Below are positions 9,408 to 62,765 of a DNA stretch of 64,000 nucleotides, piece by piece. Below the pieces are notes generated by a model. That model had not been told where the DNA came from. It saw only the letters and a program-made list of their open reading frames with translations, and searched no databases. How positions within the stretch are numbered: position 1 is the first letter of the stretch; each line of letters begins with the position of its first letter. The position numbers and the translations under genes are program-made. The stretch is from a virus: the IMG/VR virus record IMGVR_UViG_3300027659_003120, positions 27,817 through 91,816 of that record; one strand, written 5' to 3'.

Positions 9408-9411
9408 GTAG

Positions 9412-9439
9412 GAGGGGAACTCACGTTTCCCTCTTTTTT
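9412..9439 (+). terminator. Rho-independent terminator after gene 19
   Basis: Nine-base-pair stem GAGGGGAAC / GTTTCCCTC (one G-T pair) with a 4-nt TCAC loop, directly followed by six T. It separates the tail sheath/tube unit from the head unit. Confidence 0.88.
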
Positions 9440-9459
9440 ATAATGTAAAGGAAATAACC

Positions 9460-43909: not shown

Positions 43910-43917
43910 TATAAATA
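43910..43917 (+). promoter_or_regulatory. T4-type late promoter TATAAATA after gene 41
   Basis: Exact late octamer 25 nt before the next ATG, with GGAG between. It marks a return from replication genes to late expression. A one-base variant TATAAATC (44984-44991) before the following gene is weaker. Confidence 0.75.
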
Positions 43918-45005: not shown

Positions 45006-46241
45006 ATGAAATTTAAAGACTTTTTAATTGAGGGCGCAAAAAAAGAAGGTGCCAATCTTCATTTGGAACATATTGAGGACCAAGTTTTAAACCGCGGTGT
45101 CGCTGGCGCTAGAGAAGCAATTAATTTTTTGCGTTCTTTGCGTGATATGCTTGCTGGGCACTCAGAAACCAAAGTAAATGTTACCACTAAATGGGATGGT
45201 GCACCTGCGGTTTTTTGTGGAATTAATCCAGACAACGGTAAGTTTTTTGTAGGCACCAAAGGTGTTTTCAATGCAAATCCTAAACTTAACTATACTGAAG
45301 ATGATATTGATAACAATCATTCATCGCCGGGTTTAAATGCTAAATTAAAAGTTGCATTAAGGTATTTACCGAAATTGGGTATCACTGGAATATTACAGGG
45401 TGATATGATGTTCTCTAAGGGTGATATAAAAAAACAAACTATAGATGCACAATCCTATATTACTTTTCAACCTAACACTATTGTATATGCTGTTCCGTCA
45501 AATACAAAATTATCACAATCAATGTTAGCAGCACAAATGGGAATTGTTTTTCACACTTCATATACTGGCAAAAGATTTTCAGATATGAAGGCATCATTTA
45601 ACATTGATATTAATAATTTAAAAACAACTAAAGATGTTTGGTTTCGTGATGCATATTTTATTGACGCATCTGGTACAGCATCATTTACTGAAAAAGAAAC
45701 AAAAGATATTACATACATATTATCTCAAGCAGGCACTATTTTTCAGAAAATTAATCATTTAACTTTGAATAAAATTGCTACTTCAGAAAGTATTTTAGTT
45801 CAAATTAAAACTTTCAACAATACGAAAGTTCGTGAAGGTGAAGCAATCAAAGATACATATAAACATACTCAAGAATTAGTAAGATGGGTAGAATCTAGAT
45901 TCAATAAAGAAATTTTAGATGCTAAAAAAGAAGAAACTAAACTAAAACGCCAATCTGAAAAAAATGAGATTATGCGTTTTTATAGAAATAATGGAAACGA
46001 ATTAAAAAATATATTTGATTTAATGAACATGCTTGTAGATTCAAAAAACATGATTGTTAAAAAATTACAAGGAATGAAACAGGTAACTGATACATTCTTA
46101 AAAACTGATACCGGGTTTAAAGTTACAAATCCAGAAGGTTTTGTGGCTGTAGATAAATTAACTGGCGGAGCTGTAAAGTTGATTGATAGACTAGAATTTG
46201 CCTATGCCAATTTTACTGCCGCTAAAGCTTGGACAAAATAA
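45006..46241 (+). CDS. Ligase-like nucleotidyltransferase domain protein (DUF6267-type)
   Basis: A 411-residue protein conserved in far T4-like phages. It has KWDG (62-65) within TTKWDGAPAVFCG, matching the KxDG lysine motif of ATP-grasp-unrelated DNA/RNA ligases and capping enzymes, a motif III-like GILQGDMMF (128-136) and a beta strand ITFQPNTIVYAVP where motif IV may fall. Motif V/VI are not clear. The first ten residues, MKFKDFLIEG, resemble the T4 capsid-targeting sequence with an LIE/G site for gp21. It may be a packaged enzyme; activity is unproven. Confidence 0.65.
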   Translation: MKFKDFLIEGAKKEGANLHLEHIEDQVLNRGVAGAREAINFLRSLRDMLAGHSETKVNVTTKWDGAPAVFCGINPDNGKFFVGTKGVFNANPKLNYTEDDIDNNHSSPGLNAKLKVALRYLPKLGITGILQGDMMFSKGDIKKQTIDAQSYITFQPNTIVYAVPSNTKLSQSMLAAQMGIVFHTSYTGKRFSDMKASFNIDINNLKTTKDVWFRDAYFIDASGTASFTEKETKDITYILSQAGTIFQKINHLTLNKIATSESILVQIKTFNNTKVREGEAIKDTYKHTQELVRWVESRFNKEILDAKKEETKLKRQSEKNEIMRFYRNNGNELKNIFDLMNMLVDSKNMIVKKLQGMKQVTDTFLKTDTGFKVTNPEGFVAVDKLTGGAVKLIDRLEFAYANFTAAKAWTK

Positions 46242-46522
46242 TGGCTGATAAAAAATATGATTTAACCGAGATTATGAAAGAGTATGGTGATGCCGATTTT
46301 GGTTTTACCGCTACAGATGAAGAAGAGTATAATTCCGTCATTGCAGAAAAAGAAGAAACTGTAGAAGAATATAAACAAAGATTGCACGAAGTTGAAAAAT
46401 TAGTTTTGCCGTTTCTAACTAAACTATTAAAAACTGCTGACCAACCAATTATAAAATGGCCAAATCGCAAACCAATGATAGAAGCGCAAATACAAAAGAT
46501 ATTGAATTTGACAAGAGGTTGA
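46241..46522 (+). CDS. Conserved hypothetical protein
   Basis: A 93-residue protein with an acidic N-terminus and a conserved helical C-terminus (YKQRLHEVEKLVLPFLTKLL; IIKWPNRKPMIEAQIQKIL). It starts in a TAATG overlap with the ligase-like gene. It recurs in far T4-like phages; function unknown. Confidence 0.65.
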   Translation: MADKKYDLTEIMKEYGDADFGFTATDEEEYNSVIAEKEETVEEYKQRLHEVEKLVLPFLTKLLKTADQPIIKWPNRKPMIEAQIQKILNLTRG

Positions 46523-46558
46523 CAATAATTTAAATATATATAATGTAAGGAGTATATT

Positions 46559-47401
46559 ATGAAAGATTTGATAATCGGATGTAGCACTGGCTATAATTGG
46601 AATACCCTAAAGTATTGGGTTAATTCTATCAATAAAACTGGTTTTGAGGGTGACAAAGTACTCATCCTCATGAACTGCGACTTAGAAACTGCAACAAAAG
46701 TTAATAATGCAGGATTCAAAGTTATAGGTTTTAATCAAGACGCAAATGGTAATTTAATTTATCAACATGGTAAAATACCAGTACATGTTGAAAGATTTTT
46801 ACACATCTATGAACACCTATGTCAAAATGAATATCGGTATGTAATTACAACTGATGTTAAAGATGTAATATTTCAGAAAAATCCATTCACCGAATTACAT
46901 AAACACATTCTCGGGCAAAGACAAAATCTTGCGTTTGCTTCCGAAAGCATTCGGTATAAAGATGAGCCGTGGGGAAATCAAAATTTACTTGAGACATATG
47001 GCAATTACATTTATGAAAAATTTAAAGACATAGAAATATATAATGTTGGTGTTTTAGCTGGTCGTGGATTTGCTATGCGAGATTTAGCAATCAACATTTT
47101 CACTGCTGCTATAAATCGCCCAATTCCTATTTGTGACCAATCAACATTTAATTTTATGATTTCGCAAGAGCCATATAAAAGCACAGCCAGATATTGTAAA
47201 TCTGAGGATGCTTGGGCTTGTCAATTAGGAGTAACCGCAGACCCAAGTAAAATTGAATCGTTCAAACCATTCTTACTTGAACCAATTCCTCGTATGGAAA
47301 ATAATAAGGTAGTAACATCTACAGGAAAAGAATTCACTATCGTTCACCAGTATGATAGAGTTCCTGAGTGGCGTAAAATCATTGAGGACACTTATGCTTG
47401 A
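46559..47401 (+). CDS. Glycosyltransferase-like protein, first gene of glycan cassette
   Basis: A 280-residue protein with GT-A-like features: KDLIIGCSTGYNWNTLKYWV, VLILMNCD and TTDVKDVIFQKNPF, where DVKD provides a DxD-like site. AAGGAG precedes the ATG. TTGACA and TATAAT occur upstream but only 14 nt apart, so a promoter is doubtful. It overlaps the next gene by 8 nt. The acceptor is probably a surface glycan; inferred from context. Confidence 0.65.
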   Translation: MKDLIIGCSTGYNWNTLKYWVNSINKTGFEGDKVLILMNCDLETATKVNNAGFKVIGFNQDANGNLIYQHGKIPVHVERFLHIYEHLCQNEYRYVITTDVKDVIFQKNPFTELHKHILGQRQNLAFASESIRYKDEPWGNQNLLETYGNYIYEKFKDIEIYNVGVLAGRGFAMRDLAINIFTAAINRPIPICDQSTFNFMISQEPYKSTARYCKSEDAWACQLGVTADPSKIESFKPFLLEPIPRMENNKVVTSTGKEFTIVHQYDRVPEWRKIIEDTYA

Positions 47402-48080
47402 TGGTATTTTTTTTGTTTCTTCGGCATTAAATGTAAAACAACTATCTGTCTTTAGTAATGATGAGCGGTATCATCAAACGGTAAATACGATTAATTCTAT
47501 TGACAAATACTGCCCAAATAATGTAAAATATATGTTTGATACATCATATCAAATTCCAGATGAAAATTACATAGAAGGTATAAAAAAACTAGGAGTTAAT
47601 TTTGCATGGGTTGGTTATAATGATACTGTACAAAGACTATCCGAACAAGGTTCAAGAAGTTTAGCAGAGACCATAGGTTTTGATATGATTCTTAATGAAT
47701 TTTTATTAAATAGGGTAGAAAGTAAAAGAGTTTATAAAATATCAGGTCGGTATCAATTAAATGATAACTTCACATTAAACCGAGAAGATTTTAAAGATTC
47801 TTTTGTTTTTTTACCTACTGTAAATTCTTGGATGCCTAAACACCATCAAGAATTTGCAGAAGTTGATAGAATATTTGAACTCAGATTATGGCATATGGAC
47901 TATAATTTACTTGACACATTCAAAAAAGAAGTGTATAATATACTAAATGATATGGTAAAATATAATATTGATGTTGAACATTCTTATTATAAGAACCTTA
48001 ACAAGTATAAATGGACAACAATTAACCCTATAGGATTAGAAGGTGTGATAGCACCAACAGGAGCAATTATTAATGAGTAA
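47394..48080 (+). CDS. Glycan-cassette protein, possible WavE-like sugar transferase
   Basis: A 228-residue protein (IFFVSSALNVKQLSVFSNDE; NTINSIDKYCPNNVKYMFDT; KISGRYQLNDNF). The KISGRY motif appears in WavE-type LPS proteins and related glycosyltransferases, but the similarity is faint. ATG 47394 overlaps the preceding stop; it also overlaps the dehydratase gene by 8 nt. Membership in a surface-sugar operon is the strongest evidence. Confidence 0.5.
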   Translation: MLDGIFFVSSALNVKQLSVFSNDERYHQTVNTINSIDKYCPNNVKYMFDTSYQIPDENYIEGIKKLGVNFAWVGYNDTVQRLSEQGSRSLAETIGFDMILNEFLLNRVESKRVYKISGRYQLNDNFTLNREDFKDSFVFLPTVNSWMPKHHQEFAEVDRIFELRLWHMDYNLLDTFKKEVYNILNDMVKYNIDVEHSYYKNLNKYKWTTINPIGLEGVIAPTGAIINE

Positions 48081-49107
48081 AAATGTTTTGATTACCGGTG
48101 GGTGTGGCTTCATTGCACACCACGTTATTGATTTGTTAATTGAAAAAACAGATTGGAATATTACAACTTTGGATAGATTAGATTACTCTGGTAATTTGAA
48201 TCGTCTACATGAAGTCTTGGAAAAATATGATACACAAACCCGTAAGAGAGTTAATATTGTATTTCATGATTTGAAAGCAGAGATTAATCCTCTTGTAAAC
48301 AACTTCATCAACAAGTTAGGCAAGATTGATACGATTCTTCATCTAGCTGCATCATCACACGTTGATAGGTCTATCACACATCCAATGGAATTCATTCAAG
48401 ACAATACCATTGGTACTGCACATTTACTAGAGTATGCACGAAGACTTGACAACTTGGAAACATTCTTGTATTTCAGTACAGATGAAATTTTTGGTTCAGC
48501 ACCACCTGGTGTAGCATATGGTGAGAGGGCTAGGTATAATTCAACTAATCCATATTCAGCATCTAAAGCAGCCGCAGAAGAATTCTGTGTTGCATATGAA
48601 AACACATATAAGATGCCTATGATGATTACACACACAATGAATGTATTTGGTGAGCGCCAAACTCCAGAAAAGTTTATTCCGTTATGTATTGACCGTGTTC
48701 GTAAAGGTAAAAAGATTTTCATTCACTCAAATGCTGCTCGTACAGAAGCGGGAAGTAGATTCTACATTCATGCGGCCGATGTAGCTGAAGCATTGATGTT
48801 TTTGATTACAACAAAGCCAGCTTGCCCAACAGACTATGGTGATGCTAAATGTGCTAAGTTTAACATTGTTGGCAAAGAAGAAGTTGACAATCTAACCCTA
48901 GCTAAACTTGTAGCACAAGCACAAGACAAAGAGTTGATTTATGAAATGCTTGATTTTCATAAATCACGCCCAGGTCACGATTTACGGTATGCACTAGATG
49001 GTACTTTGATGCGTAATCTTGGTTGGGAACCTAAGATTGCATTCAGTGAACGAATAAAACAAGTAAGTGATTGGTATTTACAAAACACAAGGTGGTTAGA
49101 ATTATGA
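48073..49107 (+). CDS. NAD-dependent nucleotide-sugar dehydratase (RmlB-like)
   Basis: Extended short-chain dehydrogenase of 344 residues: Rossmann GGCGFIAHH (8-16), HLAASSHVDRSI, FSTDEIFG and catalytic YSASK. The closest pattern is dTDP-glucose 4,6-dehydratase (RmlB). It would make a 4-keto-6-deoxy sugar nucleotide, the usual substrate for C-methyltransferases such as the next gene's product. Confidence 0.88.
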   Translation: MSKNVLITGGCGFIAHHVIDLLIEKTDWNITTLDRLDYSGNLNRLHEVLEKYDTQTRKRVNIVFHDLKAEINPLVNNFINKLGKIDTILHLAASSHVDRSITHPMEFIQDNTIGTAHLLEYARRLDNLETFLYFSTDEIFGSAPPGVAYGERARYNSTNPYSASKAAAEEFCVAYENTYKMPMMITHTMNVFGERQTPEKFIPLCIDRVRKGKKIFIHSNAARTEAGSRFYIHAADVAEALMFLITTKPACPTDYGDAKCAKFNIVGKEEVDNLTLAKLVAQAQDKELIYEMLDFHKSRPGHDLRYALDGTLMRNLGWEPKIAFSERIKQVSDWYLQNTRWLEL

Positions 49108-50315
49108 ATATAGATTATGAAACAATTGATGAATGTATTGCGTGTGGCAGTGTTGATTTGGTGCCCGTATTAGATTTAGGTAATCAACCTCTTGCAAATT
49201 CATATAAGAAAAACCCTGATGATACTGAATCATATTTTCCACTTGCAATCAATAGGTGTAAACAATGTTGCCATGTTCAGTTAAGTGTAAGAGTTAACCC
49301 TGACCTGTTATTTAAAGATTATGCTTATGTTTCTGGCACAACAAAAACACAATTAGACTATTTTAAATGGTTTGCAGAATTTGCAATTGAAAAATACGGA
49401 ACAACACCAACTAAAGTTTTGGATATTGGTTGTAACGACGGAAGTCAATTGAATGCATTTCAAGACATTGGTTCAGAAACATATGGTGTTGACCCTGCTG
49501 AAAACTTATTTCCAACATCATCTCAAAGACACAAAGTTTTATGTGGATTTTTTACAGGTAAAGAATTTGGACGAGAAAAATTTGATGTAATAACATGCCA
49601 AAATGCATTTGCACATAACTTTAATCAATTAGAATTGCTGCAAAATATTAAAACCGTTATGCATAAAGATAGTATTCTTTTTGCAACCACATCTCAGTGT
49701 GATATGATTTTAAATGGTGAATATGATACGATTTATCACGAACATCTTTCATTCTATAACATAAAATCTGTAGATGCTTTATGTAAACGAGCAGGATTAA
49801 ATTTAATTGATGTTATTAAAAATCCTATTCATGGAATGAGTTATATCTTTGTTATTTCAAAATTTAAAACAGCACAGAGAACTATAGATAATTTAATTGA
49901 ATTAGAAACTATTAAAGGACTTTATGATGAGAAAACATATAATCTATATGAAGCGCAGTGTCTTAACAATGTTACAAGATTTGCAAATTTTATTAAAAAA
50001 TTACGAGAAGACGGAAAAACTATTATTGGCTTTGGTGCACCAGCCAAAGGTAACACACTTATGAATTTTGCTGGCATTGGACCAGATTTTATTATTGATG
50101 AGAATCCATTAAAGCAAGGATTGTTTTGCCCTGGTATTAATGTGCCGATATATGGCTCATCATATTTGGATAATTATAAAGATAAAACTGGATTAATTTT
50201 TATACCTTTAGCATGGAATTTCTATAAAGAGATAAAGAGTAAAATTTTAAAAATGCGACCAAACGGAGCAGATACTTTTGTGAGACATTTTCCTAAATTT
50301 GAAGTGGAATCTTAA
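49104..50315 (+). CDS. Sugar C-methyltransferase (NovU/TylCIII-like)
   Basis: A 403-residue protein with the three-part build of nucleotide-sugar C-methyltransferases: N-terminal zinc site CIACGSVDLVPVLDLG plus CKQCCH, central SAM domain with VLDIGCNDGSQL, and C-terminal Rossmann-like domain IIGFGAPAKGNTLMNF. It probably methylates the 4-keto-6-deoxy sugar from the preceding dehydratase. ATGA overlap upstream, TAATG downstream. Confidence 0.85.
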   Translation: MNIDYETIDECIACGSVDLVPVLDLGNQPLANSYKKNPDDTESYFPLAINRCKQCCHVQLSVRVNPDLLFKDYAYVSGTTKTQLDYFKWFAEFAIEKYGTTPTKVLDIGCNDGSQLNAFQDIGSETYGVDPAENLFPTSSQRHKVLCGFFTGKEFGREKFDVITCQNAFAHNFNQLELLQNIKTVMHKDSILFATTSQCDMILNGEYDTIYHEHLSFYNIKSVDALCKRAGLNLIDVIKNPIHGMSYIFVISKFKTAQRTIDNLIELETIKGLYDEKTYNLYEAQCLNNVTRFANFIKKLREDGKTIIGFGAPAKGNTLMNFAGIGPDFIIDENPLKQGLFCPGINVPIYGSSYLDNYKDKTGLIFIPLAWNFYKEIKSKILKMRPNGADTFVRHFPKFEVES

Positions 50316-51007
50316 TGAAAATTGGTTTTGGTTTCTATGGTATCACTGATGGTACAGATGAGAGAACCGGTTATAGTAGAAACTATAAACATTGTTGGAA
50401 TGGTATACAAAAACATCTTATCCAACCTTTCGTAGATAGAGGAAATGAAGCTGTAATTTATGCATCTACATATCCTTTTACTACTAAAGAGTCAGAATTA
50501 GAATTTATATCCACAGTAAAACCTAAAAAAATATTATATTCCGATTTTGCAACATCTGATGCATTTACATCTAAATCTGCACTGCATGATGCATTTGTTG
50601 GTGAAGATTTAGATGTTGTTATATTCACCAGATTTGATATTCATTTTACAAAAATAATAGCAAATGAAGATATAGATTTCACTAAATTTAATTTTTTGTT
50701 TCCAGAAGATGAAAATTGGTGGAGGTCTCACCGATTTGCTTGTGATTGTTTTTATATTTGGAATCACAAATATAGCAATTCAGTGAAAGATGCTATGCGA
50801 GAAACATATGGATGGCCAAGAGGTACATTCTATCCTGATACTCACGGTCTAATTAATTTTTTAGATAAAAAAATACCACCAACAGAATTACATTTTATTT
50901 CAAAAATATGCGAGATAAGTAATGTTAATACATTTTATACATTGTGCAGAAAAGATGTGCCAGAACATCCGTGTAAGCATCCTGAAGTGAAAGCAAAATA
51001 TGGCTAA
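50315..51007 (+). CDS. Uncharacterised glycan-cassette protein
   Basis: A 230-residue protein: MKIGFGFYGITDGTDERTGY start, LDVVIFTRFDIHF with an FDIH acidic site, and DENWWRSHRFACDCFYIWNH. The layout recalls small glycosyltransferases, but I cannot name the family. It is coupled by TAATG upstream and an 8-nt overlap downstream. Confidence 0.55.
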   Translation: MKIGFGFYGITDGTDERTGYSRNYKHCWNGIQKHLIQPFVDRGNEAVIYASTYPFTTKESELEFISTVKPKKILYSDFATSDAFTSKSALHDAFVGEDLDVVIFTRFDIHFTKIIANEDIDFTKFNFLFPEDENWWRSHRFACDCFYIWNHKYSNSVKDAMRETYGWPRGTFYPDTHGLINFLDKKIPPTELHFISKICEISNVNTFYTLCRKDVPEHPCKHPEVKAKYG

Positions 51008-51731
51008 TTTAATTATATGCCCGGTCGGTATGAAAATGCCACATGACCCTCGGTGGAAAGAAGAAGAACATTGGCGTTGGACTAGCAATGACCGAAATTA
51101 TGAAACTCTTGCTGTAGTTTATAATGACTTTACACCAGAAGCAAACTCATATGATAACTTAATTAAGTTAAAGGGCCATAAATGGCAGATTATTCGTGAT
51201 ATTGCTAAAGATATTCCTAAAGGTAAATATAATTACATCGGATGTGTTGATGATGATTTGATTACCGATTATCATAGTTTTAATAATGGTCTTAAATTGG
51301 CTGAACAATTTAATTTTCCATACTGGCAATTATCTATGCCAGCAGATTCAAGTTTAATTTATCAACCACTGTTTAATGACCAAACTTGTATATTTTCTGA
51401 AACTAATTTTATTGAAATGGGTTCTTGTTTTTTCACTGAAGAAAAGTTTAGATTTTTAATTGAATTTATTAGTCATTGGGATTTAGAAATTGCATGGGGT
51501 ATAGATAAAACTTTTTACGATTTATTTCAGTGCCCGGCTGTTGTAGTTCACACAGGAATGATACATCAACCTTTTCGTGATAGTTATTACGATAAACAAA
51601 AAGCCATGGATGAAATGAATGATTATCTCTATAATAAGTATCCTAGTATATTAAAAGAACACTATGGTAGAGAATCTAATTTTATTGATAGACAAAATAC
51701 TTTAAGAAAGTTTGCATTAAAAAATGATTAA
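51000..51731 (+). CDS. GT-A type glycosyltransferase-like protein (DUF707-like)
   Basis: A 243-residue protein with a central VDDDLITDYHSF metal/nucleotide motif (DDD near residues 84-86), preceded by YETLAVVYNDFTPEANSYDN and followed by MGSCFFTEEKFRF and WGIDKTFYDLF, the order seen in DUF707-type putative transferases. 8-nt overlaps on both sides. Confidence 0.62.
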   Translation: MANLIICPVGMKMPHDPRWKEEEHWRWTSNDRNYETLAVVYNDFTPEANSYDNLIKLKGHKWQIIRDIAKDIPKGKYNYIGCVDDDLITDYHSFNNGLKLAEQFNFPYWQLSMPADSSLIYQPLFNDQTCIFSETNFIEMGSCFFTEEKFRFLIEFISHWDLEIAWGIDKTFYDLFQCPAVVVHTGMIHQPFRDSYYDKQKAMDEMNDYLYNKYPSILKEHYGRESNFIDRQNTLRKFALKND

Positions 51732-52272
51732 ATTAATAATCCTTGATGTTGATGGTGTAATGACAGATGGGCGTAAATACTACGACCGAGATGGTGTTGT
51801 TAGGTTAAAAACATTCTGCGATAAAGATTGGACTGCAATCAAAAGATTTAGAGCTATTGGTATAAATGTTATTTTCTTAACTGGTGACCCCTTTAATGTT
51901 ACAATAGGAGAAAATAGAAACATTGATGTAATTGTAAACCGAGCAAGTGGAAATTCTGAAATTATTCATAAAGATAAATCTGAATATTTGCCTAAAATAT
52001 GTGAAGATTATAAAGTTAGCCCAGATGAAATTGCATTTATAGGTGATGATATATTTGATGTTCAATTAATGCGATTGGTTGGGTTATCATTTTGCCCATG
52101 GGATGCACCAAAAATTGTTAGAAGTTATGCTCAAATACTTAGCGGCAATGGTGGTGAAAATTTAATAGCAGAGATGTATGATTATATGGAAGAAAAAAAG
52201 ATTATTGTGACTGGTTATTTTCCCGACCATTTACAAAAAGTTTATGAAATAGATTTGAAAGAGAAATTCTAA
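51724..52272 (+). CDS. KdsC-like HAD sugar phosphatase
   Basis: A 182-residue C0-type HAD phosphatase: DVDGVMTDG (catalytic D8 and D10), FLTGD as motif II, K128-region HKDKSEYL and GDDIFDVQLM as motif IV. KdsC-type enzymes remove phosphate from Kdo-8-P or similar sugar phosphates. Here it may dephosphorylate a bis-phosphorylated sugar made by the adjacent PfkB kinase. A C-terminal stretch of about 25 residues extends beyond the usual core. Confidence 0.82.
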   Translation: MIKLIILDVDGVMTDGRKYYDRDGVVRLKTFCDKDWTAIKRFRAIGINVIFLTGDPFNVTIGENRNIDVIVNRASGNSEIIHKDKSEYLPKICEDYKVSPDEIAFIGDDIFDVQLMRLVGLSFCPWDAPKIVRSYAQILSGNGGENLIAEMYDYMEEKKIIVTGYFPDHLQKVYEIDLKEKF

Positions 52273-52940
52273 TGTTTGATATAACTCTATATGGGCATTT
52301 GACAAATGACACGATTATTGATAATGAAACAGAAACTATGTCACTAGGTGGTATTGCTAATTGTTGGAGAACTTTAATTGATTTAGATTCAAAATTGCAA
52401 ATAGGCTTAATGCCAACCGCCATAGGAACATCTGAAATTATAATTAATAGAACAAATTCTACAAGAACTTCTAAATCAAGTTTAAATGAAACTGCATTTA
52501 CACCAGAAATAAAACTATCTAAAATACACCATGTAATGTATCTTAATGAACTTCCAGATACTACTTTCATATCAAAATTGAATGGTATTTTAAGTGCTGA
52601 TTTATGTGTAGGAAAAGAAGTTGATTATGAATTATTAAAATATTTTGATTATATTTTTGTATCTAATGATGAACATGATGTAAATAAAATTAAAAAATAT
52701 AGTAAAGGTGCTGTTATTGCACATGAGCCTGAAGGAAGTATATATTGGTCAAGTGCAAATGATTTTGCTAAATCTTATACAATTGATAAAAAAGATTTTG
52801 TTGATAATGCAAATGTATTAGGTGCTGGTGATATGTTTGCTTCTTGTTTTTTGTATGCTATACTTAGTAATAGACTCCATATTGCAATAGAATTCGCACA
52901 CATTACCACGGCTGATTTAATAAGGAAATATAATGAATGA
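52272..52940 (+). CDS. PfkB-family sugar kinase
   Basis: A short (222-residue) ribokinase-like protein: SLGGIANCWRTL near the start corresponds to the substrate-site GGxxN, and NVLGAGDMFASCF gives the GAGD anion hole and catalytic aspartate. About 80 residues shorter than typical, with the central lid reduced. Coupled by TAATG to the phosphatase and 8-nt overlap to the methyltransferase. Likely phosphorylates a sugar phosphate in the cassette's nucleotide-sugar pathway. Confidence 0.78.
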   Translation: MFDITLYGHLTNDTIIDNETETMSLGGIANCWRTLIDLDSKLQIGLMPTAIGTSEIIINRTNSTRTSKSSLNETAFTPEIKLSKIHHVMYLNELPDTTFISKLNGILSADLCVGKEVDYELLKYFDYIFVSNDEHDVNKIKKYSKGAVIAHEPEGSIYWSSANDFAKSYTIDKKDFVDNANVLGAGDMFASCFLYAILSNRLHIAIEFAHITTADLIRKYNE

Positions 52941-54839: not shown

Positions 54840-55288
54840 CAATGTATATTGCACACAGAGGAAATTTAGAGGGTCGCTTATCTGAACACGAGAATGACCC
54901 AAATTATATTGACAATGCAATAAATCAGGGATACACGGTTGAAGTTGATTTGTGGTATTTTGATGGTATTCTTAAACTGGGGCACGATGAAAAATTTCAT
55001 TCTGTGCCATCAGAGTGGCTATTTTACAGAAATACTTCTATTTTAAATCATTGTAAAAATTCTGCCGCTTTTGATTATTGCTTAAATAATAATTTACATG
55101 CATTTTGGCATACGGAAGAAGATTATGTTCAAACTACTCTTGGATATACTGTTGGATATCCAGGAAGAGAATCTGTAGGCAGTAAATTTATACTTGGTGT
55201 GCCAGAAAGAGTTTATGAATTAGATGATATTAAGCATAGAATTACATTTGGAGTAATGTCAGACTATGTAAAACTGCTAAATACATAA
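54836..55288 (+). CDS. Glycerophosphodiester phosphodiesterase-like protein
   Basis: A 150-residue protein of the PI-PLC-like TIM-barrel class: IAHRGN (catalytic His), SEHENDPNYIDNAI, GYTVEVDLW and LGHDE match GDPD motifs I-III. It is much shorter than full GDPD (about 240 residues), so the C-terminal barrel half is reduced. It ends the coupled glycan operon by ATGA overlap and might release or trim a glycerophosphoryl group; this is uncertain. Confidence 0.72.
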   Translation: MTMYIAHRGNLEGRLSEHENDPNYIDNAINQGYTVEVDLWYFDGILKLGHDEKFHSVPSEWLFYRNTSILNHCKNSAAFDYCLNNNLHAFWHTEEDYVQTTLGYTVGYPGRESVGSKFILGVPERVYELDDIKHRITFGVMSDYVKLLNT

Positions 55289-55291
55289 ATA
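55284..55291 (+). promoter_or_regulatory. Variant late promoter CATAAATA upstream of NadR-like gene
   Basis: The octamer overlaps the stop of the preceding gene and lies 35 nt before the NadR-like ATG, with a GAGGCGGG ribosome site between. It separates the glycan operon from the following late genes. Confidence 0.55.
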
Positions 55292-55326
55292 TATTGTAAC
55301 TTAACTTGCTGTAGAGGCGGGAAAAT

Positions 55327-57483
55327 ATGGATTTTAAGCGGTTCTTATCGGAACAAAAGGAAAAGCATGCCGTCCTTGCATTTGGGCGCATGAATCCACC
55401 AACGGTTGGTCACGCCAAACTTGTTGATAAAGTAAAAGATATTGCAAATGAAGTTGGTGGCAAATCTTTTATTGTATTGTCGCACACACAAGATGCGGCC
55501 AAAAATCCACTCAGTCCTGAACAAAAAGTAAAACACGCACAAAGATATTTTCCTGGCGTCAATATTACAACCTCAGATAAATCTCACCCAAATTTTTTAT
55601 CCCAAGCGTCTAAAATTTATAGTGCTGGTTATACACATCTTATCATGGTCGCTGGCTCTGATAGAATTGCAGAATATAAAACAATTCTTAATAAATATAA
55701 TGGCGTAAAAGGCACTCACGGTTATTTTAAATTCAGAGATATTCAAGTTCATTCAGCAGGTGAACGAGACCCAGACGCTGAAGGCGTTTCTGGTATGTCA
55801 GCATCTAAAATGCGAGGCCATGCTGAAAAAGGTAACTTCAAAGAATTCAAAAAAGGAATTCCTTCTCATGTACAACCAGAACACGCTAAAGAATTGTATA
55901 ATGATGTGCGTAAAGGTATGCAAATCAAAGAAGAAAATGAATTCAAAGAATCAGATTTGAGTAGATTCAGTAAGTATATAATAAAGGCAACTAAAACCGA
56001 ACCTAAAATTGTTCGCAAAACAAATCCGTCTGGAAGAACTACAGATCATGTTGAGTACGAAGTTCATGGCACATTATCATCACATAGAAAATCTTTTAAA
56101 TCTAAAAAAGAAGCAGAAGAATATTTTAAAACTGTTAAAGAAGAAGATGTTAATGAAGAATTTGAACAATTATTAAATGAAGGCGTACACGACAAAGCAA
56201 TCTTCAAAGCAGTATTTTTATCTGGCGGACCAGGTTCAGGTAAAGATTATGTGCTAAACAATACCTTAGCTGGTCATGGTCTAACCGAAATTAATTCAGA
56301 TAAAGCATTTGAATTTCTAATGGATAAAAAGAAATTAGATAAAAAAATGCCAGACTCCGAGAAAGAAGTTCGTGACATAGAACGAGGTAAAGCAAAAAAT
56401 ATGATTGAATTGCGACAAAGATTTGCACTCTCTGGGCGTAATGGACTTATTATCAATGGCACAGGTGATGACCCCAAAAAATATGCTAAACTAAAAAAAG
56501 AATTAGAAGAATTAGGTTATGAGACTTCTATGATAGCTGTAGTTACAAAAGATGAAATATCAGCACAACGCAACATAGAAAGAGGGCAACGAGGAGGTCG
56601 TACTGTACCTGAAACTACTCGCAAAGAAAAATGGGATGCAGTAAACAACTCAAGGCCTGAAATGGCTAAATTGTTTGGTCAGAATTATATTGAATTTGAT
56701 AATTCTGAAGATTTGCGAACCGCACCACCGGAAGTAACGGAAGTAAAAAAGAAAGAAATACTACAAATCTTTAAAAAAATTCAAGAATTTATTAAGAGAC
56801 CACCAAAAAATCCAGCAGCATCTTCTTGGGTTGCAGGAGAACTTTCAAAGAAAGATACTTTGCCTGTTCCTAGAAAGGGTACTGAAAAACTGCAACCAGC
56901 GGATTCAAGTCTTGCTCAAGATGCACAGAAACTTGGATTACAATATTATGGTTTTGGTAGGTATGGAAAAAATGGTAAAGTAACACATCATTCAGTTCAT
57001 GGTAAATTAGTTCAAGACCCAACACATATGGAACAAGAAAAAAGTGCCAAAAAAGCAGCAGATATTAAACTTGCAGCATCAAGCGGTAGTAATACAAAGA
57101 ATAAAAAAGTAACTGAAGAATTTTCACAATCATTAAGAAAAAAAGTTAAACATTCAGACGGAAATACATACACTGCACACAGCGATAAACCAAGAATTTA
57201 TGTTATAAGAAATAATGCTGCTAAAGATGCTCATCGGTTAAATGGTGAGATAGTACAAACATCAAATGGATATATGGTTAAATTAAAGGAGAATGCGGAT
57301 GATGAAATTAATCAAGAGTTTTTTCAAGAAGACTTACCCACCAGAATTGCCACAAACGAACATTGTGGAGACTCCAGTTATCACACCAGTGATAATGCCG
57401 GAACCACCGATAGTGCTACAAGAATTGAAGGTAAACTCAGTTTCTCAAAACTCAAAGAACAGTGGAAAAAAAAGAACAGTTAA
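55327..57483 (+). CDS. NadR-like fusion: NMN adenylyltransferase-type domain plus P-loop kinase
   Basis: A 718-residue protein. After MDFKRFLSEQ (capsid-targeting-like) comes a nucleotidyltransferase: AFGRMNPPTVGHAKLV (TxGH, 26-29) and GVSGMSASKMR near residue 157. A disordered Lys/Glu linker leads to a kinase domain with GGPGSGKD (300-307) and ERGQRGGRTVPETTR, as in zeta-toxin/AAA_33 kinases. The C-terminal 240 residues contain small basic repeats (SVHGKLV; RKKVKHSDG). NMNAT plus kinase recalls NadR (NMN adenylyltransferase with ribosylnicotinamide kinase). The substrates are inferred. Confidence 0.75.
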   Translation: MDFKRFLSEQKEKHAVLAFGRMNPPTVGHAKLVDKVKDIANEVGGKSFIVLSHTQDAAKNPLSPEQKVKHAQRYFPGVNITTSDKSHPNFLSQASKIYSAGYTHLIMVAGSDRIAEYKTILNKYNGVKGTHGYFKFRDIQVHSAGERDPDAEGVSGMSASKMRGHAEKGNFKEFKKGIPSHVQPEHAKELYNDVRKGMQIKEENEFKESDLSRFSKYIIKATKTEPKIVRKTNPSGRTTDHVEYEVHGTLSSHRKSFKSKKEAEEYFKTVKEEDVNEEFEQLLNEGVHDKAIFKAVFLSGGPGSGKDYVLNNTLAGHGLTEINSDKAFEFLMDKKKLDKKMPDSEKEVRDIERGKAKNMIELRQRFALSGRNGLIINGTGDDPKKYAKLKKELEELGYETSMIAVVTKDEISAQRNIERGQRGGRTVPETTRKEKWDAVNNSRPEMAKLFGQNYIEFDNSEDLRTAPPEVTEVKKKEILQIFKKIQEFIKRPPKNPAASSWVAGELSKKDTLPVPRKGTEKLQPADSSLAQDAQKLGLQYYGFGRYGKNGKVTHHSVHGKLVQDPTHMEQEKSAKKAADIKLAASSGSNTKNKKVTEEFSQSLRKKVKHSDGNTYTAHSDKPRIYVIRNNAAKDAHRLNGEIVQTSNGYMVKLKENADDEINQEFFQEDLPTRIATNEHCGDSSYHTSDNAGTTDSATRIEGKLSFSKLKEQWKKKNS

Positions 57484-57492
57484 GAGTGTAAA

Positions 57493-57882
57493 ATGAAATC
57501 GTATAAACAATTTTTAGAGGCGTGTTGGACTGGGTACAAACAGGTTGGTATGAAGAAAAAAGGTAACCGTATGGTGCCAAATTGTGTACCAAAAAACGAA
57601 GAAGTTGAGTTGGACGAAACGCAAGCATGGACACGCAAAGAAGGTAAGAATCCGGAAGGCGGGCTGAATCGTAAAGGTATTGCATCTTATCGTGCTGCAA
57701 ATCCTGGTTCTAAATTATCTATGGCAGTTACTACACCACCATCTCAATTGAAAGCCGGCTCAAAAGCAGCTAATCGTAGAAAATCATTCTGTGCTAGAAT
57801 GGGCGGAATGCCAGGTCCCATGAAAGATGAGAAGGGTGAACCAACTCGTAAAGCATTATCACTAAGAAAATGGAATTGTTAA
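57493..57882 (+). CDS. DUF6321-type basic virion-associated protein
   Basis: A 129-residue protein with TRKEGKNPEGGLNRKGIASY, GSKLSMAVTTPPSQLKAGSK and a final RRKSFCARMGGM...LRKWNC, a highly conserved DUF6321 pattern in cyanophages. It starts MKSYKQFLEA, nearly identical in form to the T4 internal-protein capsid-targeting sequence. The basic, Cys/Trp-ended domain may bind nucleic acid. Function unknown. Confidence 0.75.
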   Translation: MKSYKQFLEACWTGYKQVGMKKKGNRMVPNCVPKNEEVELDETQAWTRKEGKNPEGGLNRKGIASYRAANPGSKLSMAVTTPPSQLKAGSKAANRRKSFCARMGGMPGPMKDEKGEPTRKALSLRKWNC

Positions 57883-57902
57883 CAAAATAATAGGAGAAAC
57901 AA

Positions 57903-58667: not shown

Positions 58668-58668
58668 A

Positions 58669-61600
58669 ATGAAAATACAGTCAAATGCTATGGATAGAAT
58701 TAGACAATTGCAAAACAGAACTTTACGAGAAACTGTTGGTTTGCAAGAAGCAATGCATCCAGATGATCCTAAAAAAAATATGCCGCTAGGTGGAGGAAGT
58801 GGTGGCGGTGTTCCGTTCAACACAGTATTTGATCCTAAAAATCCATCAAAAATACCTGGAAGTTTTAAAGCTAAGGCGGATGCAGCGGCCAGTAAAACAA
58901 AACCTGAAACATTAGGTAGCGCACCTAGTGGAAGAAATTATGGTCTAATTCAAACAACTCAAGCTGAAAAAGATGCAGCATGGAAAAAATCGCAAGACCT
59001 CAAAGCACAAAAGGCCGCAGCGGGTGGCGGTGGCGCTGGAAAACCACCTTCTGGTGGTAACTCATCAGGAAGAGATAACATGCCTCCTGATTCCGACAAA
59101 TTTGATAAAGCAGTACCTGCTGCCGCAATTTCTACGGGCGCGGCTGGAGCAATTGCCATCGCCGCTCAACAGTTATCAAAAGACGATAAACCAGCATCAG
59201 CGCCAAAGCCAGCAGCAGCAGCAAAAGATACAGCAGGACCAAAAGGCGTGCCATTGCCAGACAATGACCCTAGATGGAAATTACCAATTCCGCCACCACC
59301 GCCAGTAGTAGCAAAGACAGAACCAGCGCCAGCATCAGCGCCAAAGCCAGCAGCACCTGCCACTAATGCCAGAGCTAATTTTGCAGCCATCGATCCAAGA
59401 AGAGATGCCATGGCAGCTAATGTTGAACCAGTAAAAGCGAAACAAGTTAGACCTGATAATGGTGATAGTGGAAGTCCTGGAAGTGTTGCTGGCAAAAAAA
59501 TTGACGCCAATATTCCACAATATAAACAACCAACAACACCGCCAGCAGCAAAGACAGAACCAGCGCCAGCGCCAGCAAAGACAGACAGAAATACTTATGC
59601 ATCCAGCGATTCAAGAATAGCCTCCATGGCAGTTGATGTTAAACCAGTAAAAGCAACACCACCGCCAGTAACAGTAAAAAAAGAACCAGCTCCAGTAGTA
59701 GTAAAAAAAGAACCAGCTCCAGTAGTAGTAAAAAAAGAACCAGCTCCAGTAGTAGTAAAAAAAGAACCAGCGCCAGTAGTAGTAAAAAAAGAACCACCGC
59801 CAACACCGCCAGCAGCGAAAACACCACCGCCAACACCGCCAGATAATATTAGTCCCGATGTTGATATTAGTCCCGAGGCAAAAGCCGCAGGTGAAAGGAA
59901 GGGCGTTAACCCAGAAATGTTAAGGGCTCAGGTAGTCGCAGCAAATAAAGAAAAAAAAGAAAAAGAAGAAAGAGAAAAATTATCCGGAGCAATCTACTCC
60001 GACGAATCTGTACAATCTAAAGCAAGAAGTGCATCTTTTGTTTTTGAAAGAATTAGAAATATAACAGAAGGTCGCCCATCTCAGCGTCATCCACTAGAGG
60101 GGCATGATTACCACAAAAAATCTAATGATGAATTAATTTATATTGCTAAAGATGCACATAAAGCGGCTGAAGCAATGAAGGGCCATAATACTAAAGCAGA
60201 AAACAAATATCGTGACCAAGCAAACGATTCTGCTACTGTTCGGTACTATCGTCAAAAAAGTGGTATGCCGGACTGGTATAAAAAGAAATATGGTCACTTA
60301 AAGGAAGAAAATGTACCTGTGCCACCAGAAACAAAAGTAGTAAAAAAAGAACCAGAAACAAAAGTAGTAACACAAAAGAAACTACAAACCGGAGGTTCAG
60401 CTGGTGGTAGTAGATATCCGTGGAATTACGAAAGTGTTAATCATGTGACGGAAGCAAAAGAAAAGACAGAGTATGATTACGAAGGTGACATGGCTCGTGG
60501 TCAATTGCAAAGCATTATCAGCAATGCACAGAGAGTACATGACATGCTAGAAGATAATGACAATCTTGCTGAGTGGGTACAATCAAAGATTACTCTTGCT
60601 GAAGATTACATTTCAACAGTTGCTAATTACATGATGAGCGAAGTTGATGAAGAAGTGCAAATTGATGAACTATCTTCCGAGCTTCTAGGACGCTATAAAA
60701 AATCTGCTGGTGCTCAAGCATCCGCTGCTGATAAATCTGGTGACTATGCTAAAGCTAACAAACGGTTTAGTGGCATTATGAAAGCAACCAAAAAGCAATT
60801 TGCTAACGATACTAAACCTGTATCCGAATCTGATGCCGCATATGGTGCTTCTCTTAGAGCAAAAGAAGAAAAACGTAAGATGAGTAACATTAGTGGTGCA
60901 GATAAATCTAAGTTATCATCAATTGTTTCTAGGTTGAATAGAGAAAAGAAGAAACTACCTCAGGGCGCTAACGATACTAAGCAAGTTGTGGCGGAAGTTA
61001 GCAATAATACACTAAAAAGTTATCAACAAAAAGTAAGTTCTGACTCTATGAAACATAAAGCAGACCCAACAAAACGTAGTCCAGAAAAAGCCAACCGCAG
61101 TGTTGCAGGATTTGCTAAAGCGCAGAATCGTTCAGAGCAAGGTGTGGCGGAAGCAGTTGAATCACATCAAGGAGAGTGGATTGATGAAGCAGGTCCTGGT
61201 CTATGGGCAAACATTCATGCAAAGCGCCAACGAATTAAGCAAGGTTCAAAAGAGCGTATGAGAAATCCTGGCGAAAAAGGTGCACCAGAATCTGGTGCAT
61301 TAGAAAAAGCAAGAGGCACGAATGAAGAAGTAAAAGGTGAATATGAACGCAAAGTTGACAAATATCTGAAAAAGAAATATACACCAGATGATAACAAACC
61401 ACCATTTGATGCACCATATGCTAAAATGCCAAAGGCTGATAAATCTGGTGCAGTGCATTCACCAATGTCAAGAGCAAAACATCTTGCTAAGATGGCAGGT
61501 AGAAAACAAGCAGGTATTAAAGAGAATTCACATGATGGACAAGATAATATTAATACACCCGCTAAAAGGTCTTTATCTAAAACCGCAGGAATGGTTAAAA

Positions 61601-61692
61601 GTATTTTAAAGGGTGCAAAATCTAAAAATAAAAATTTAGATAAATTTGAAAGCGATCCAGAATTATCTTCACAAATAGTCAAACAAGAATAA
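58669..61692 (+). CDS. Large Pro/Ala/Lys-rich repeat protein, probable virion protein
   Basis: A 1007-residue protein. Residues about 60-425 are disordered, Pro/Ala-rich and include tandem VKKEPAPVV repeats. Residues 430-1007 contain helical, Lys/Glu-rich blocks with recurring basic segments (RSPEKANRSVAGFAKAQNRS, KSYQQKVSSDSMKHKADPTK) and VTEA/EEV acidic links like the smaller upstream proteins. The long flexible chain with many xxE sites could be cut by gp21. No enzymatic domain is seen. Probably structural or internal; inference. Confidence 0.5.
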   Translation: MKIQSNAMDRIRQLQNRTLRETVGLQEAMHPDDPKKNMPLGGGSGGGVPFNTVFDPKNPSKIPGSFKAKADAAASKTKPETLGSAPSGRNYGLIQTTQAEKDAAWKKSQDLKAQKAAAGGGGAGKPPSGGNSSGRDNMPPDSDKFDKAVPAAAISTGAAGAIAIAAQQLSKDDKPASAPKPAAAAKDTAGPKGVPLPDNDPRWKLPIPPPPPVVAKTEPAPASAPKPAAPATNARANFAAIDPRRDAMAANVEPVKAKQVRPDNGDSGSPGSVAGKKIDANIPQYKQPTTPPAAKTEPAPAPAKTDRNTYASSDSRIASMAVDVKPVKATPPPVTVKKEPAPVVVKKEPAPVVVKKEPAPVVVKKEPAPVVVKKEPPPTPPAAKTPPPTPPDNISPDVDISPEAKAAGERKGVNPEMLRAQVVAANKEKKEKEEREKLSGAIYSDESVQSKARSASFVFERIRNITEGRPSQRHPLEGHDYHKKSNDELIYIAKDAHKAAEAMKGHNTKAENKYRDQANDSATVRYYRQKSGMPDWYKKKYGHLKEENVPVPPETKVVKKEPETKVVTQKKLQTGGSAGGSRYPWNYESVNHVTEAKEKTEYDYEGDMARGQLQSIISNAQRVHDMLEDNDNLAEWVQSKITLAEDYISTVANYMMSEVDEEVQIDELSSELLGRYKKSAGAQASAADKSGDYAKANKRFSGIMKATKKQFANDTKPVSESDAAYGASLRAKEEKRKMSNISGADKSKLSSIVSRLNREKKKLPQGANDTKQVVAEVSNNTLKSYQQKVSSDSMKHKADPTKRSPEKANRSVAGFAKAQNRSEQGVAEAVESHQGEWIDEAGPGLWANIHAKRQRIKQGSKERMRNPGEKGAPESGALEKARGTNEEVKGEYERKVDKYLKKKYTPDDNKPPFDAPYAKMPKADKSGAVHSPMSRAKHLAKMAGRKQAGIKENSHDGQDNINTPAKRSLSKTAGMVKSILKGAKSKNKNLDKFESDPELSSQIVKQE
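59674..59802 (+). repeat. 27-bp tandem repeat (VKKEPAPVV units)
   Basis: Four nearly identical in-frame 27-bp units (differing at one GCT/GCG codon) plus a partial fifth, each starting GTAAAAAAAGAACC. The surrounding sequence has degenerate Pro-Ala repeats. Each unit includes an A7 run, so copy number and frame may vary by slippage. Confidence 0.9.
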
Positions 61693-61694
61693 TT

Positions 61695-61702
61695 CATAAA
61701 TA
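61695..61702 (+). promoter_or_regulatory. Variant late promoter CATAAATA upstream of structural gene
   Basis: The octamer lies just after the preceding stop and 26 nt before the structural protein ATG, which has an AAGGAG site. Same layout as before gene 18. Confidence 0.58.
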
Positions 61703-61728
61703 TAACAATAAACAATAAGGAGATTAAA

Positions 61729-62340
61729 ATGGCTTTATGGACTAATTCAGATGCAGCCAACGGTGCACCAAAAATAATTGGTGTTGCTGGTGTAAATAAC
61801 GCAAGTGGCTCAGATATGTATGGTAATACACAAATTGCAGCATTTAATACGGGTTTACGGGAAACTGCCGGTGTTTTCGGTGTAAGTACAATTGAACAAA
61901 CGGTATCAGAAACTTCAAATACACACCCACAACATGCGGGCTGGGTTTTGGTTACCAGAGGTACAGGACCAATTATTAGTGTTACAGCAAATACTTCTGC
62001 TGTTACAACTAATGGCGCACTAACTTTAACTGGCGGCGGAACTGGTGCTACACAGGCTAATGTTTATATTTCGGTTAATGCTCAAGGATATGTTGTAAAT
62101 TCAGCAATCCAAATTAATCCAGTTAATGATTTTATTGGTGGTAATTACTTAACTGTTCCAACACATGCAGCGGCAGGAAATGCAGTATTTACCTTCACTC
62201 TAGGTGGTCGTGCTGGTCGTAGTCAAACTGAAACTTTAGTTGCTATGGGCAGTTTAGGTAATGTTAATGCTACAGGTATTGCTCCCGCAGTATTCGTTGC
62301 AGATAATGCTGCTGACAATGCAATTTTCCCAAATAGTTAA
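61729..62340 (+). CDS. Probable virion structural protein
   Basis: A 203-residue, Gly/Ala/Thr/Asn-rich beta protein (GWVLVTRGTGPIISVTANTS; LTLTGGGTGATQANVYISVN), typical of virion surface or decoration proteins in far T4-like phages. The N-terminus ALWTNSDAANGAPKII is conserved among such proteins in my recollection. It has a dedicated late promoter and a strong ribosome site, suggesting high expression. Exact role unknown. Confidence 0.7.
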   Translation: MALWTNSDAANGAPKIIGVAGVNNASGSDMYGNTQIAAFNTGLRETAGVFGVSTIEQTVSETSNTHPQHAGWVLVTRGTGPIISVTANTSAVTTNGALTLTGGGTGATQANVYISVNAQGYVVNSAIQINPVNDFIGGNYLTVPTHAAAGNAVFTFTLGGRAGRSQTETLVAMGSLGNVNATGIAPAVFVADNAADNAIFPNS

Positions 62341-62765
62341 TGTTAAACTTTACATCATTTTTGACTGAGGAAATAGAATTTGGTCAAGCAGTACAAGCAC
62401 ATGAACCCACAGGTAAAGAATCTTTATCTGTGGAAAATCCAATGTTTGTTGCAAAGATAAATTCAAATTTTAAAATAGAATTAAATGATGTTTTTTTGTC
62501 TCCAGAGTCTGGATTTCAAAAAATTCGTAAGGTATTGCATAAATTTGGTTTAGATATGCCAGCAATGTATGATATGGAACCAGATGGCGATGAGATTGTA
62601 TTAGATGTTGCTCAATTTGGTGATGCATCTTTAGGCACAGGATTACTTTACATATTATATCTTTTAGGTGATGAAGGATATTATCATTTTTATTCTGAAA
62701 TTACAAATGAATCGGGAATAGAAGAATTGATTTCTTCTGGTCTTGAGGAGGAAGACGAAGATTAA
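62340..62765 (+). CDS. Conserved hypothetical late protein with capsid-targeting-like start
   Basis: A 141-residue acidic protein starting MLNFTSFLTEE, which resembles the internal-protein targeting signal with an LTE site. The remainder has KINSNFKIELNDVFLSPESG, a DMEPDGDEIVLDV strand pair and a Glu-rich tail. It overlaps the structural gene by TAATG. Family recurring in far T4-like phages; function unknown. Confidence 0.6.
   Translation: MLNFTSFLTEEIEFGQAVQAHEPTGKESLSVENPMFVAKINSNFKIELNDVFLSPESGFQKIRKVLHKFGLDMPAMYDMEPDGDEIVLDVAQFGDASLGTGLLYILYLLGDEGYYHFYSEITNESGIEELISSGLEEEDED

What the first reader, a model, noticed from the sequence alone, without database searches (positions are those of the whole stretch)
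45006..62765. Several late proteins start with a T4-like capsid-targeting sequence
T4 internal proteins are packaged through a start of the form MKTYQEFIAE that gp21 then removes after (L/I)xE. Similar starts occur here: MKFKDFLIEG (ligase-like, 45006), MDFKRFLSEQ (NadR-like, 55327), MKSYKQFLEA (DUF6321, 57493), MLNFTSFLTEE (62340), and in the head operon MNFINLLIEH (12162). They occur on otherwise unrelated proteins and most follow late promoters. This suggests a cargo set, including enzymes, packed in the head and injected with DNA.
Basis: partly seen in the sequence, partly recalled or inferred. Interest (0 to 1): 0.7.

Follow-up and report, generated by a model that had tools for sequence, protein, structure and literature searches.

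The report
T4-type packaging tag on phage enzymes
Several enzymes of this aquatic T4-like phage start with the same short address label that phage T4 uses to load proteins into its head; relatives of one of them that carry the label have already been found by mass spectrometry in purified virus particles, so the phage probably brings ready-made enzymes into its host along with its DNA.

Summary
Three window proteins carry a full T4-type capsid-targeting sequence (CTS): 45006 (DUF6267, ligase-like), 55327 (NMNAT-like cytidylyltransferase plus P-loop kinase) and 62340. 57493 has the targeting half, but its Glu is one residue early. 12162 is not supported. In metagenomic relatives fetched with the domain alone, 54 of 68 DUF6267 and 48 of 60 cytidylyltransferase N-termini fit the motif (shuffles about 0.5). 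The consensus F-x-[EQDS]-[FY]-[LI]-x-E equals T4 YQEFIAE at the four positions shown in T4 to drive targeting and cutting. A profile trained only on these aquatic tags ranks T4 ipII, ipIII and gp61.1 highest in T4 and finds none in T7, lambda, N4 or SPO1. In four cyanophages with published virion proteomics, the detected cytidylyltransferase/NMNAT carries the tag (4/4); in S-CREM2 the detected SAM hydrolase and APH-like kinase do too. Late promoters head all three tagged operons, and an S77 prohead protease is present. Not shown: packaging in this phage, removal of the tag, injection, and what the enzymes do. Best reading: the T4 CTS mechanism, used here for a broad set of enzymes.

The parts
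45006..45032 (+). CTS of 45006: MKFKDFLIE|G, predicted cut after Glu9
   Evidence: score 16.3, null P about 0.0002; tag kept in 54 of 68 distinct DUF6267 homologue starts
45006..46241 (+). DUF6267 protein, 411 aa, ligase-like (KWDG motif)
   Evidence: PF19782 E 5e-113, domain from residue 17; invariant K62, D64, G65, D133, E377, G378, K391; weak fold matches to DNA/RNA ligases, best E 0.14
55327..55353 (+). CTS of 55327: MDFKRFLSE|Q
   Evidence: score 15.1, null P about 0.0002; tag kept in 48 of 60 distinct homologue starts
55327..57483 (+). NMNAT-like cytidylyltransferase plus P-loop (polynucleotide/nucleotide-kinase-like) kinase, 718 aa
   Evidence: phrog_3041 E 3e-65, Zeta_toxin/AAA_33; fold matches 4gp6 polynucleotide kinase E 2e-6 and 8aih nicotinate nucleotide adenylyltransferase E 3e-5
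56161..56184 (+). internal tag-like site FEQLLNE|G between the two enzyme domains
   Evidence: conserved LxEG(V)(H/Y)D before the kinase in fused relatives and at the start of stand-alone kinases
57493..57882 (+). DUF6321 protein; start MKSYKQFLEAC has the targeting half of the tag, Glu one residue early
   Evidence: PF19846 E 4e-23; score 3.5; family tagged elsewhere
62340..62369 (+). CTS of 62340: MLNFTSFLTE|E
   Evidence: score 18.3; homologous family has 16 tagged members with 14 distinct tags
62340..62765 (+). tagged protein of unknown fold, 141 aa
   Evidence: no Pfam or PHROG match; family found
43910..43917 (+). late promoter TATAAATA heading the operon of 45006
55284..55291 (+). late promoter CATAAATA heading the operon of 55327 and 57493
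61695..61702 (+). late promoter CATAAATA heading the operon of 62340
12965..13615 (+). gp21-type S77 prohead protease, predicted to remove the tags
   Evidence: PF03420 E 5.5e-34; phrog_207 E 2e-72
13652..14623 (+). gp22-type scaffold, predicted docking partner of the tags and protease substrate
   Evidence: phrog_237 E 3.5e-76; 9 [LIVMF]xE[AGSQ] sites against 2.5 expected
   Evidence: score 4.2; aromatic at -3 not kept in relatives; no profile match to T4 gp67

Best explanation
The first 9-10 residues of 45006, 55327 and 62340 are a T4-type capsid-targeting sequence. Made late, each protein binds through this short helix to the gp22-type core of the growing prohead and is enclosed when the shell forms. 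The S77 protease then cuts after the Glu of (L/I)-x-E, and in 55327 probably also at LNE|G between its two enzyme domains. The freed enzymes stay with the DNA and enter the next host at infection. Shown here: the tag, its conservation on unrelated proteins, its identity with the T4 tag at the functionally mapped positions, the protease and scaffold genes, the late promoters. Shown by others for orthologues: detection in purified virions. Inferred: binding to gp22, cutting, ejection, and an early role in host take-over or counter-defence.
For: Domain-only searches: 54/68 DUF6267 and 48/60 cytidylyltransferase starts fit the motif, shuffles about 0.5. Consensus matches T4 IPIII at residues 4, 7, 8 and 10, mapped in T4 to targeting and processing (PMC9026906). 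Aquatic-trained profile ranks T4 gp61.1, ipII and ipIII first of 274 T4 ORFs and finds none at score 9 or more among 426 ORFs of T7, lambda, N4 and SPO1. Outside the training families 210 tagged ORFs in 83 families, about 4 expected. Constraint is on amino acids, not codons. Virion-detected cytidylyltransferase/NMNAT is tagged in S-SM1, S-SZBM1, S-CREM2 and S-SCSM1. In S-CREM2, 5 of 28 detected non-structural proteins are tagged against 2-3 of 146 undetected ORFs, P 0.001-0.003. S77 protease in all 13 tagged T4-like phages searched, T4 included. Late promoters.
Against: No proteomics of this phage and none known for DUF6267 or 62340. SSZBM1_191 is tagged but absent from the S-SZBM1 virion list, and many detected proteins have no tag, as expected of structural ones. 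Cutting and ejection are untested. The profile has some false positives. Loci are related, so counts are not fully independent.
Confidence: 0.83

Rival explanations
1. The tag docks proteins on the prohead core only during assembly (core components or assembly factors); they are degraded or expelled at maturation and do not reach the next host.
For: T4 core proteins gp22, gp67 and gp68 are cut up and mostly leave the head.
Against: Tagged orthologues are detected in CsCl-purified mature virions. The bodies are conserved enzymes, not scaffold, and cut sites are not enriched in them, unlike gp22.
Confidence: 0.09
2. The enzymes seen in cyanophage virions are carry-over from lysates, and the shared N-terminus has another role.
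For: The S-CREM2 and S-SCSM1 authors raise carry-over themselves.
Against: Carry-over should not prefer tagged proteins. In S-CREM2 three of the four detected non-lysis enzymes carry the tag at their annotated start, and the fourth (Cas9-like) has FASFMAEA at residues 19-26.
Confidence: 0.04
3. The common start is a nucleotide-level translation signal or a chance amphipathic N-terminus.
For: Starts of AT-rich genes are compositionally biased; a few chance matches occur.
Against: Composition-keeping shuffles give about 5 matches against 490 observed; synonymous codons vary freely at the fixed positions; T4 internal proteins are recovered.
Confidence: 0.02
4. The motif is genuine CTS in relatives but only fossil in this phage.
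For: 57493 has lost the canonical Glu position; some cyanophage DUF6267 homologues have lost the tag.
Against: 45006, 55327 and 62340 keep every key position, and the protease, scaffold and late promoters are present.
Confidence: 0.02

Closest known systems
T4 internal proteins IPI, IPII, IPIII and their capsid-targeting sequence (PMC9026906, PMC3012670)
   Same: Same consensus and spacing, same key positions (aromatics at residues 4 and 7, Leu/Ile at 8, Glu at 10), late expression, S77 protease and gp22-type core
   Different: Cargo here is enzymes (ligase-like, NMNAT-like plus kinase) and unknown families instead of small basic IPs; possible internal cut site between fused enzymes
T4 Alt, a packaged and ejected ADP-ribosyltransferase (PMC9026906)
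   Same: An enzyme packaged through a short gp21-cleaved propeptide and injected to modify the host
   Different: Different enzymes; several per genome sharing one consensus
Virion-associated cytidylyltransferase/NMNAT, SAM hydrolase and kinases of cyanophages (S-SM1, S-SZBM1, S-SCSM1, S-CREM2)
   Same: Orthologues of the window's 55327 detected in virions and, as found here, tagged
   Different: Reported without a packaging signal; DUF6267 and the fused kinase have not been reported in virions
P1 DarB capsid-targeting signal; SPN3US and other giant-phage propeptides (PMC9024508, PMC5694885)
   Same: N-terminal signals or propeptides that direct proteins into the head
   Different: P1 needs more than 9 and at most 30 residues with no shared consensus; SPN3US propeptides are mostly long

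Membership tests
T4-type CTS cargo protein | N-terminal 10-19 residue signal with aromatic-x2-aromatic-[LI]-x-E | tested here: met
   45006, 55327, 62340; not met by 12162; 57493 partly
T4-type CTS cargo protein | Signal is separable and found on unrelated proteins | tested here: met
   83 families outside the two training families; untagged homologues start at the domain
T4-type CTS cargo protein | Phage encodes a gp21-type S77 prohead protease and gp22-type core | tested here: met
T4-type CTS cargo protein | Late expression with head genes | tested here: met
   NATAAATA promoters at 43910, 55284, 61695; expression itself not measured
T4-type CTS cargo protein | Present in mature virions | tested here: inconclusive
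   published proteomics for tagged cytidylyltransferase orthologues in four phages; none for this phage, DUF6267 or 62340
T4-type CTS cargo protein | Signal removed after Glu by the protease | not testable with these tools
   needs N-terminal peptides
T4-type CTS cargo protein | Ejected into the host | not testable with these tools
   needs infection experiment
DUF6267 (PF19782) | Full-length profile match above cut-off | tested here: met
   45006: 378.6 bits against cut-off 27, profile 1-376 of 376
ATP-dependent nucleic-acid ligase superfamily (for DUF6267) | KxDG, acidic motif III, EG motif IV, Lys motif V in order, and ligase fold | tested here: inconclusive
   motif residues invariant in 44 sequences, but best ligase fold match only E 0.14 and no sequence match in the PDB
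NMNAT/cytidylyltransferase (55327, N-terminal half) | HxGH-type nucleotidyltransferase fold | tested here: met
   conserved FGRMNPPTVGH core; fold matches to nicotinate nucleotide adenylyltransferase E 3e-5; PF01467 just below cut-off; substrate untested

The most novel reading that the evidence does not exclude
Aquatic T4-like phages run a general enzyme-delivery programme: one short CTS consensus moves freely among dozens of protein families (ligase-like, NMNAT-like, polynucleotide-kinase-like, SAM hydrolase, APH-like and RimK-like enzymes, many unknowns), some carried as fusions that the prohead protease splits at internal copies of the tag, so that each virion brings a set of enzymes that act before any phage gene is expressed.
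Probability: 0.55. Interest if true: 0.82.

Novelty: new member of a known kind. Interest (0 to 1): 0.66.

Why it matters
It offers a sequence-readable rule for which proteins the T4-like phages of oceans and lakes carry in their heads. Virion proteomics has repeatedly found enzymes in cyanophage particles without knowing whether they are cargo or contaminants; the tag separates the two and predicts new cargo (DUF6267, the fused kinase, DUF6321, the 62340 family, T4 gp61.1). If right, injected enzymes such as an NMNAT-like protein, a ligase-like protein and a SAM hydrolase would act in the first minutes of infection, when restriction and other defences strike. It can be tested on mass-spectrometry data that already exist.

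Tried and rejected
12162 as a gp67 homologue: profile comparison with T4 gp67 gives probability 1%, so only its position in the head operon suggests a core protein. 58669 (1007 aa) as a protease-cut polyprotein: 6 candidate sites against 3.7 expected, not significant; cut sites are enriched only in gp22. PDB sequence searches with the DUF6267 and cytidylyltransferase alignments: no meaningful match. The first relative search used the tag itself as a search pattern, so its loci were left out of the conservation counts (they are in the repertoire, where they swell the DUF6267 family). The internal-Met null is contaminated by true tags behind mis-called starts, so it is conservative. The S-SM1 list of 41 virion proteins lies in a supplement that could not be read; only what the main text states is used. 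No paper in the held library describes a capsid-targeting sequence in cyanophages (one search finds one review, which names cyanophages only in its references) or mentions DUF6267; subscription journals and preprints are not covered.
Full report
Setting. The window is 27817-91816 of a 91.8-kb virus record of a T4-like myovirus. Head genes run gp16 4642, gp17 5464, gp18 7151, gp19 8862, gp20 9460, gp21 12965, gp22 13652, gp23 14644 (gp16, gp21 and gp22 by profile match; the others by order and reading of the sequence). Relatives of the finding's proteins occur in marine and freshwater Kyanoviridae (Melnitz, HTVC008M, C48C1, cyanophages) and in Stenotrophomonas phage DLP6.

Observation. All five starts exist as described. 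45006 is DUF6267 with the domain beginning at residue 17. 55327 is an NMNAT-like nucleotidyltransferase followed by a P-loop kinase. 57493 carries DUF6321 from residue 51. 62340 and 12162 have no family above cut-off. One PHROG, phrog_455, holds DUF6267 and the cytidylyltransferase in a single chain, so the two best tagged enzymes of the window are fused in other phages and presumably work together.

The tag is conserved as a pattern on unrelated bodies. To avoid bias, relatives were fetched with alignments of the domains without their N-termini, and their starts were read back to the preceding stop. 54 of 68 distinct DUF6267 starts and 48 of 60 distinct cytidylyltransferase starts fit M-x(1-5)-[FYWL]-x2-[FYLIVM]-[LIVFM]-x-E; shuffling the same residues gives 0.5 and 0.6 on average and never more than 5. 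The consensus is the same in both families: F at -6, F/Y at -3, L/I at -2, E at 0, often A or S after it. Homologues without the tag start directly at the domain (MATKTDK|NVHLEH; MKTI|VFAFGRMNPP), so the tag is a separable piece. In the DUF6267 model residues 1-17 have confidence below 50 while the body is well predicted.

It is the T4 tag. Published dissection of IPIII MKTYQEFIAE found residues 4 and 7 mainly responsible for targeting and 8 and 10 for processing (PMC9026906). These are positions -6, -3, -2 and 0 of the aquatic consensus. A profile built only from aquatic tags gave its three best scores among 274 called T4 ORFs to gp61.1, ipII and ipIII. In T7, lambda, N4 and SPO1, none of which has an S77 protease, no ORF of 426 reached a score of 9. 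In the aquatic genomes and loci, 210 tagged ORFs in 83 families lie outside the two training families, against about 4 expected from shuffles; 23 of these families have several members with distinct tags. They include DUF6321, the family of 62340 (16 members, 14 tags), a RimK-like ATP-grasp enzyme, a protein-kinase-like protein and DUF5824. Codon use at the fixed positions is free, so the constraint is on the protein.

Link to virions. S-SM1 virions contain the cytidylyltransferase T4-GC190 (PMC3037559); it starts MKKFSAFLNEA. S-SZBM1 virions contain a cytidylyltransferase (PMC9146016) starting MRFRQFIIEA, while its untagged DUF6267 neighbour does not appear in the passages read. S-SCSM1 virions contain an NMNAT (PMC9602691); the NMNAT-like gene of that genome starts MKSFLQFLKEA. 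In S-CREM2 (PMC10665884, Table 3) the detected cytidylyltransferase (MKNFSSFLTEA), SAM hydrolase (MKDFDSFLEE), APH/ChoK-like kinase (MKRFDAFLTEE), ORF13 (MKDLHSFLTEQ) and ORF136 (MQTFSMFFSED) are tagged, and the Cas9-like protein has FASFMAEA at residues 19-26. Tags occur in 5 of 28 detected non-structural proteins against 2-3 of 146 undetected ORFs (P 0.001-0.003; 0.006-0.012 without the cytidylyltransferase). The S-CRM01 kinase annotated PKN8 starts MISFDQFLSEKK; PMC10665884 cites a protein kinase in S-CRM01 virions, taken here to be this one. S-CBWM1, which lacks an S77 protease, has only a weak, untagged NMNAT candidate. The S-CREM2 and S-SCSM1 authors could not exclude carry-over; the preference for tagged proteins argues against it.

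Internal sites. In fused relatives the kinase domain is preceded by LxEG (FEQLLNEGVHD in the window, 56161-56184). This aligns with the start of stand-alone kinases (MIPFILKEGLYDPGIF in HTVC008M; MKTFAELQEGVYDPNIF in Melnitz), and in several fusions it still includes a methionine (MIEDLITEGVYD). The simplest reading is a tag swallowed by gene fusion and kept as a protease site. The phage's own protease preference is consistent: gp22, expected to be cut up, has 9 such sites against 2.5 expected, the most significant excess in the contig.

Expression. Between 19 and 64 kb only three NATAAATA octamers lie close upstream of genes, and they head the operons of 45006, 55327 and 62340.

What is not shown. 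No proteomics exists for this phage; tag removal and ejection rest on the T4 precedent; DUF6267 and 62340 have no virion data. 57493 keeps the targeting half but has Glu one residue early, so packaging without efficient cutting is possible. 12162 is not supported. One tagged protein, SSZBM1_191, was not in the virion list.

Likely function of the cargo (inference). 55327 resembles nicotinate nucleotide adenylyltransferase and polynucleotide or nucleotide kinases in its fold. DUF6267 has KWDG, GD, EG and Lys motifs in ligase order with only weak fold support. Two uses fit: repair of RNA ends cut by host nucleases (kinase plus ligase), or restoration of NAD by an NMNAT-like enzyme. I cannot choose between them; each about 0.3.

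Verdict. A T4-type capsid-targeting sequence on enzymes is very likely. The mechanism is known; its use for this cargo and its breadth in aquatic T4-like phages appear unreported in the papers that could be searched.

Noticed in passing
L085: 8696-11039 (contig IMGVR_UViG_3300023179_000021): The DUF6267 gene of this relative is broken at its KWDG motif by what looks like a split intein (first half ends ..KWDG|CIREDTILKTNYGEMTIKEL..; second half begins ..GLIHN|SPAVICG) with a separate endonuclease-like ORF (9178-9907) between the halves. Inteins favour active sites, which fits KWDG being catalytic.
   Followed up: partly
phage T4 NC_000866: 18966-19130 (gp61.1): The 54-residue hypothetical protein gp61.1 (MKTFKEFIKED..) has the best tag score in the T4 genome, above ipII and ipIII; it is predicted to be a packaged internal protein.
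   Followed up: partly
46559-55288: A block of sugar-nucleotide and glycan genes (epimerase/dehydratase, methyltransferases, KdsC-like phosphatase, PfkB-like kinase, nucleotidyltransferase) lies between the two tagged enzymes, which are nearly adjacent in Melnitz, C48C1 and DLP6. Names are from reading the sequence, not from a search.
   Followed up: no
53664-54839: The sugar nucleotidyltransferase appears fused to an RpiB/LacA-like isomerase domain at its C-terminus (VLACDHSGFELK..SFCRSGQGVNISANK), an unusual pairing; by eye only.
   Followed up: no
58669-61692: A 1007-residue low-complexity protein (KKEPAPVVV repeats) with short modules shared with other phages (phrog_26930, phrog_16028) and several VxEA-type sites; no significant excess of cut sites.
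   Followed up: partly
12162-12593: Conserved protein between gp20 and gp21: acidic helical start, an EA pair at 51-52 (VVDE|A in the window) that is invariant in three phages, then a strongly basic, highly conserved tail; possibly a protease-released DNA-binding head peptide.
   Followed up: partly
S-CREM2 OR473000: 7704-13331: A run of virion-detected genes (Cas9-like protein, ORF13, APH-like kinase, ORF15) carries the tag or variants of it; a similar run in S-CRM01 (99847-104425) is tagged as well.
   Followed up: partly
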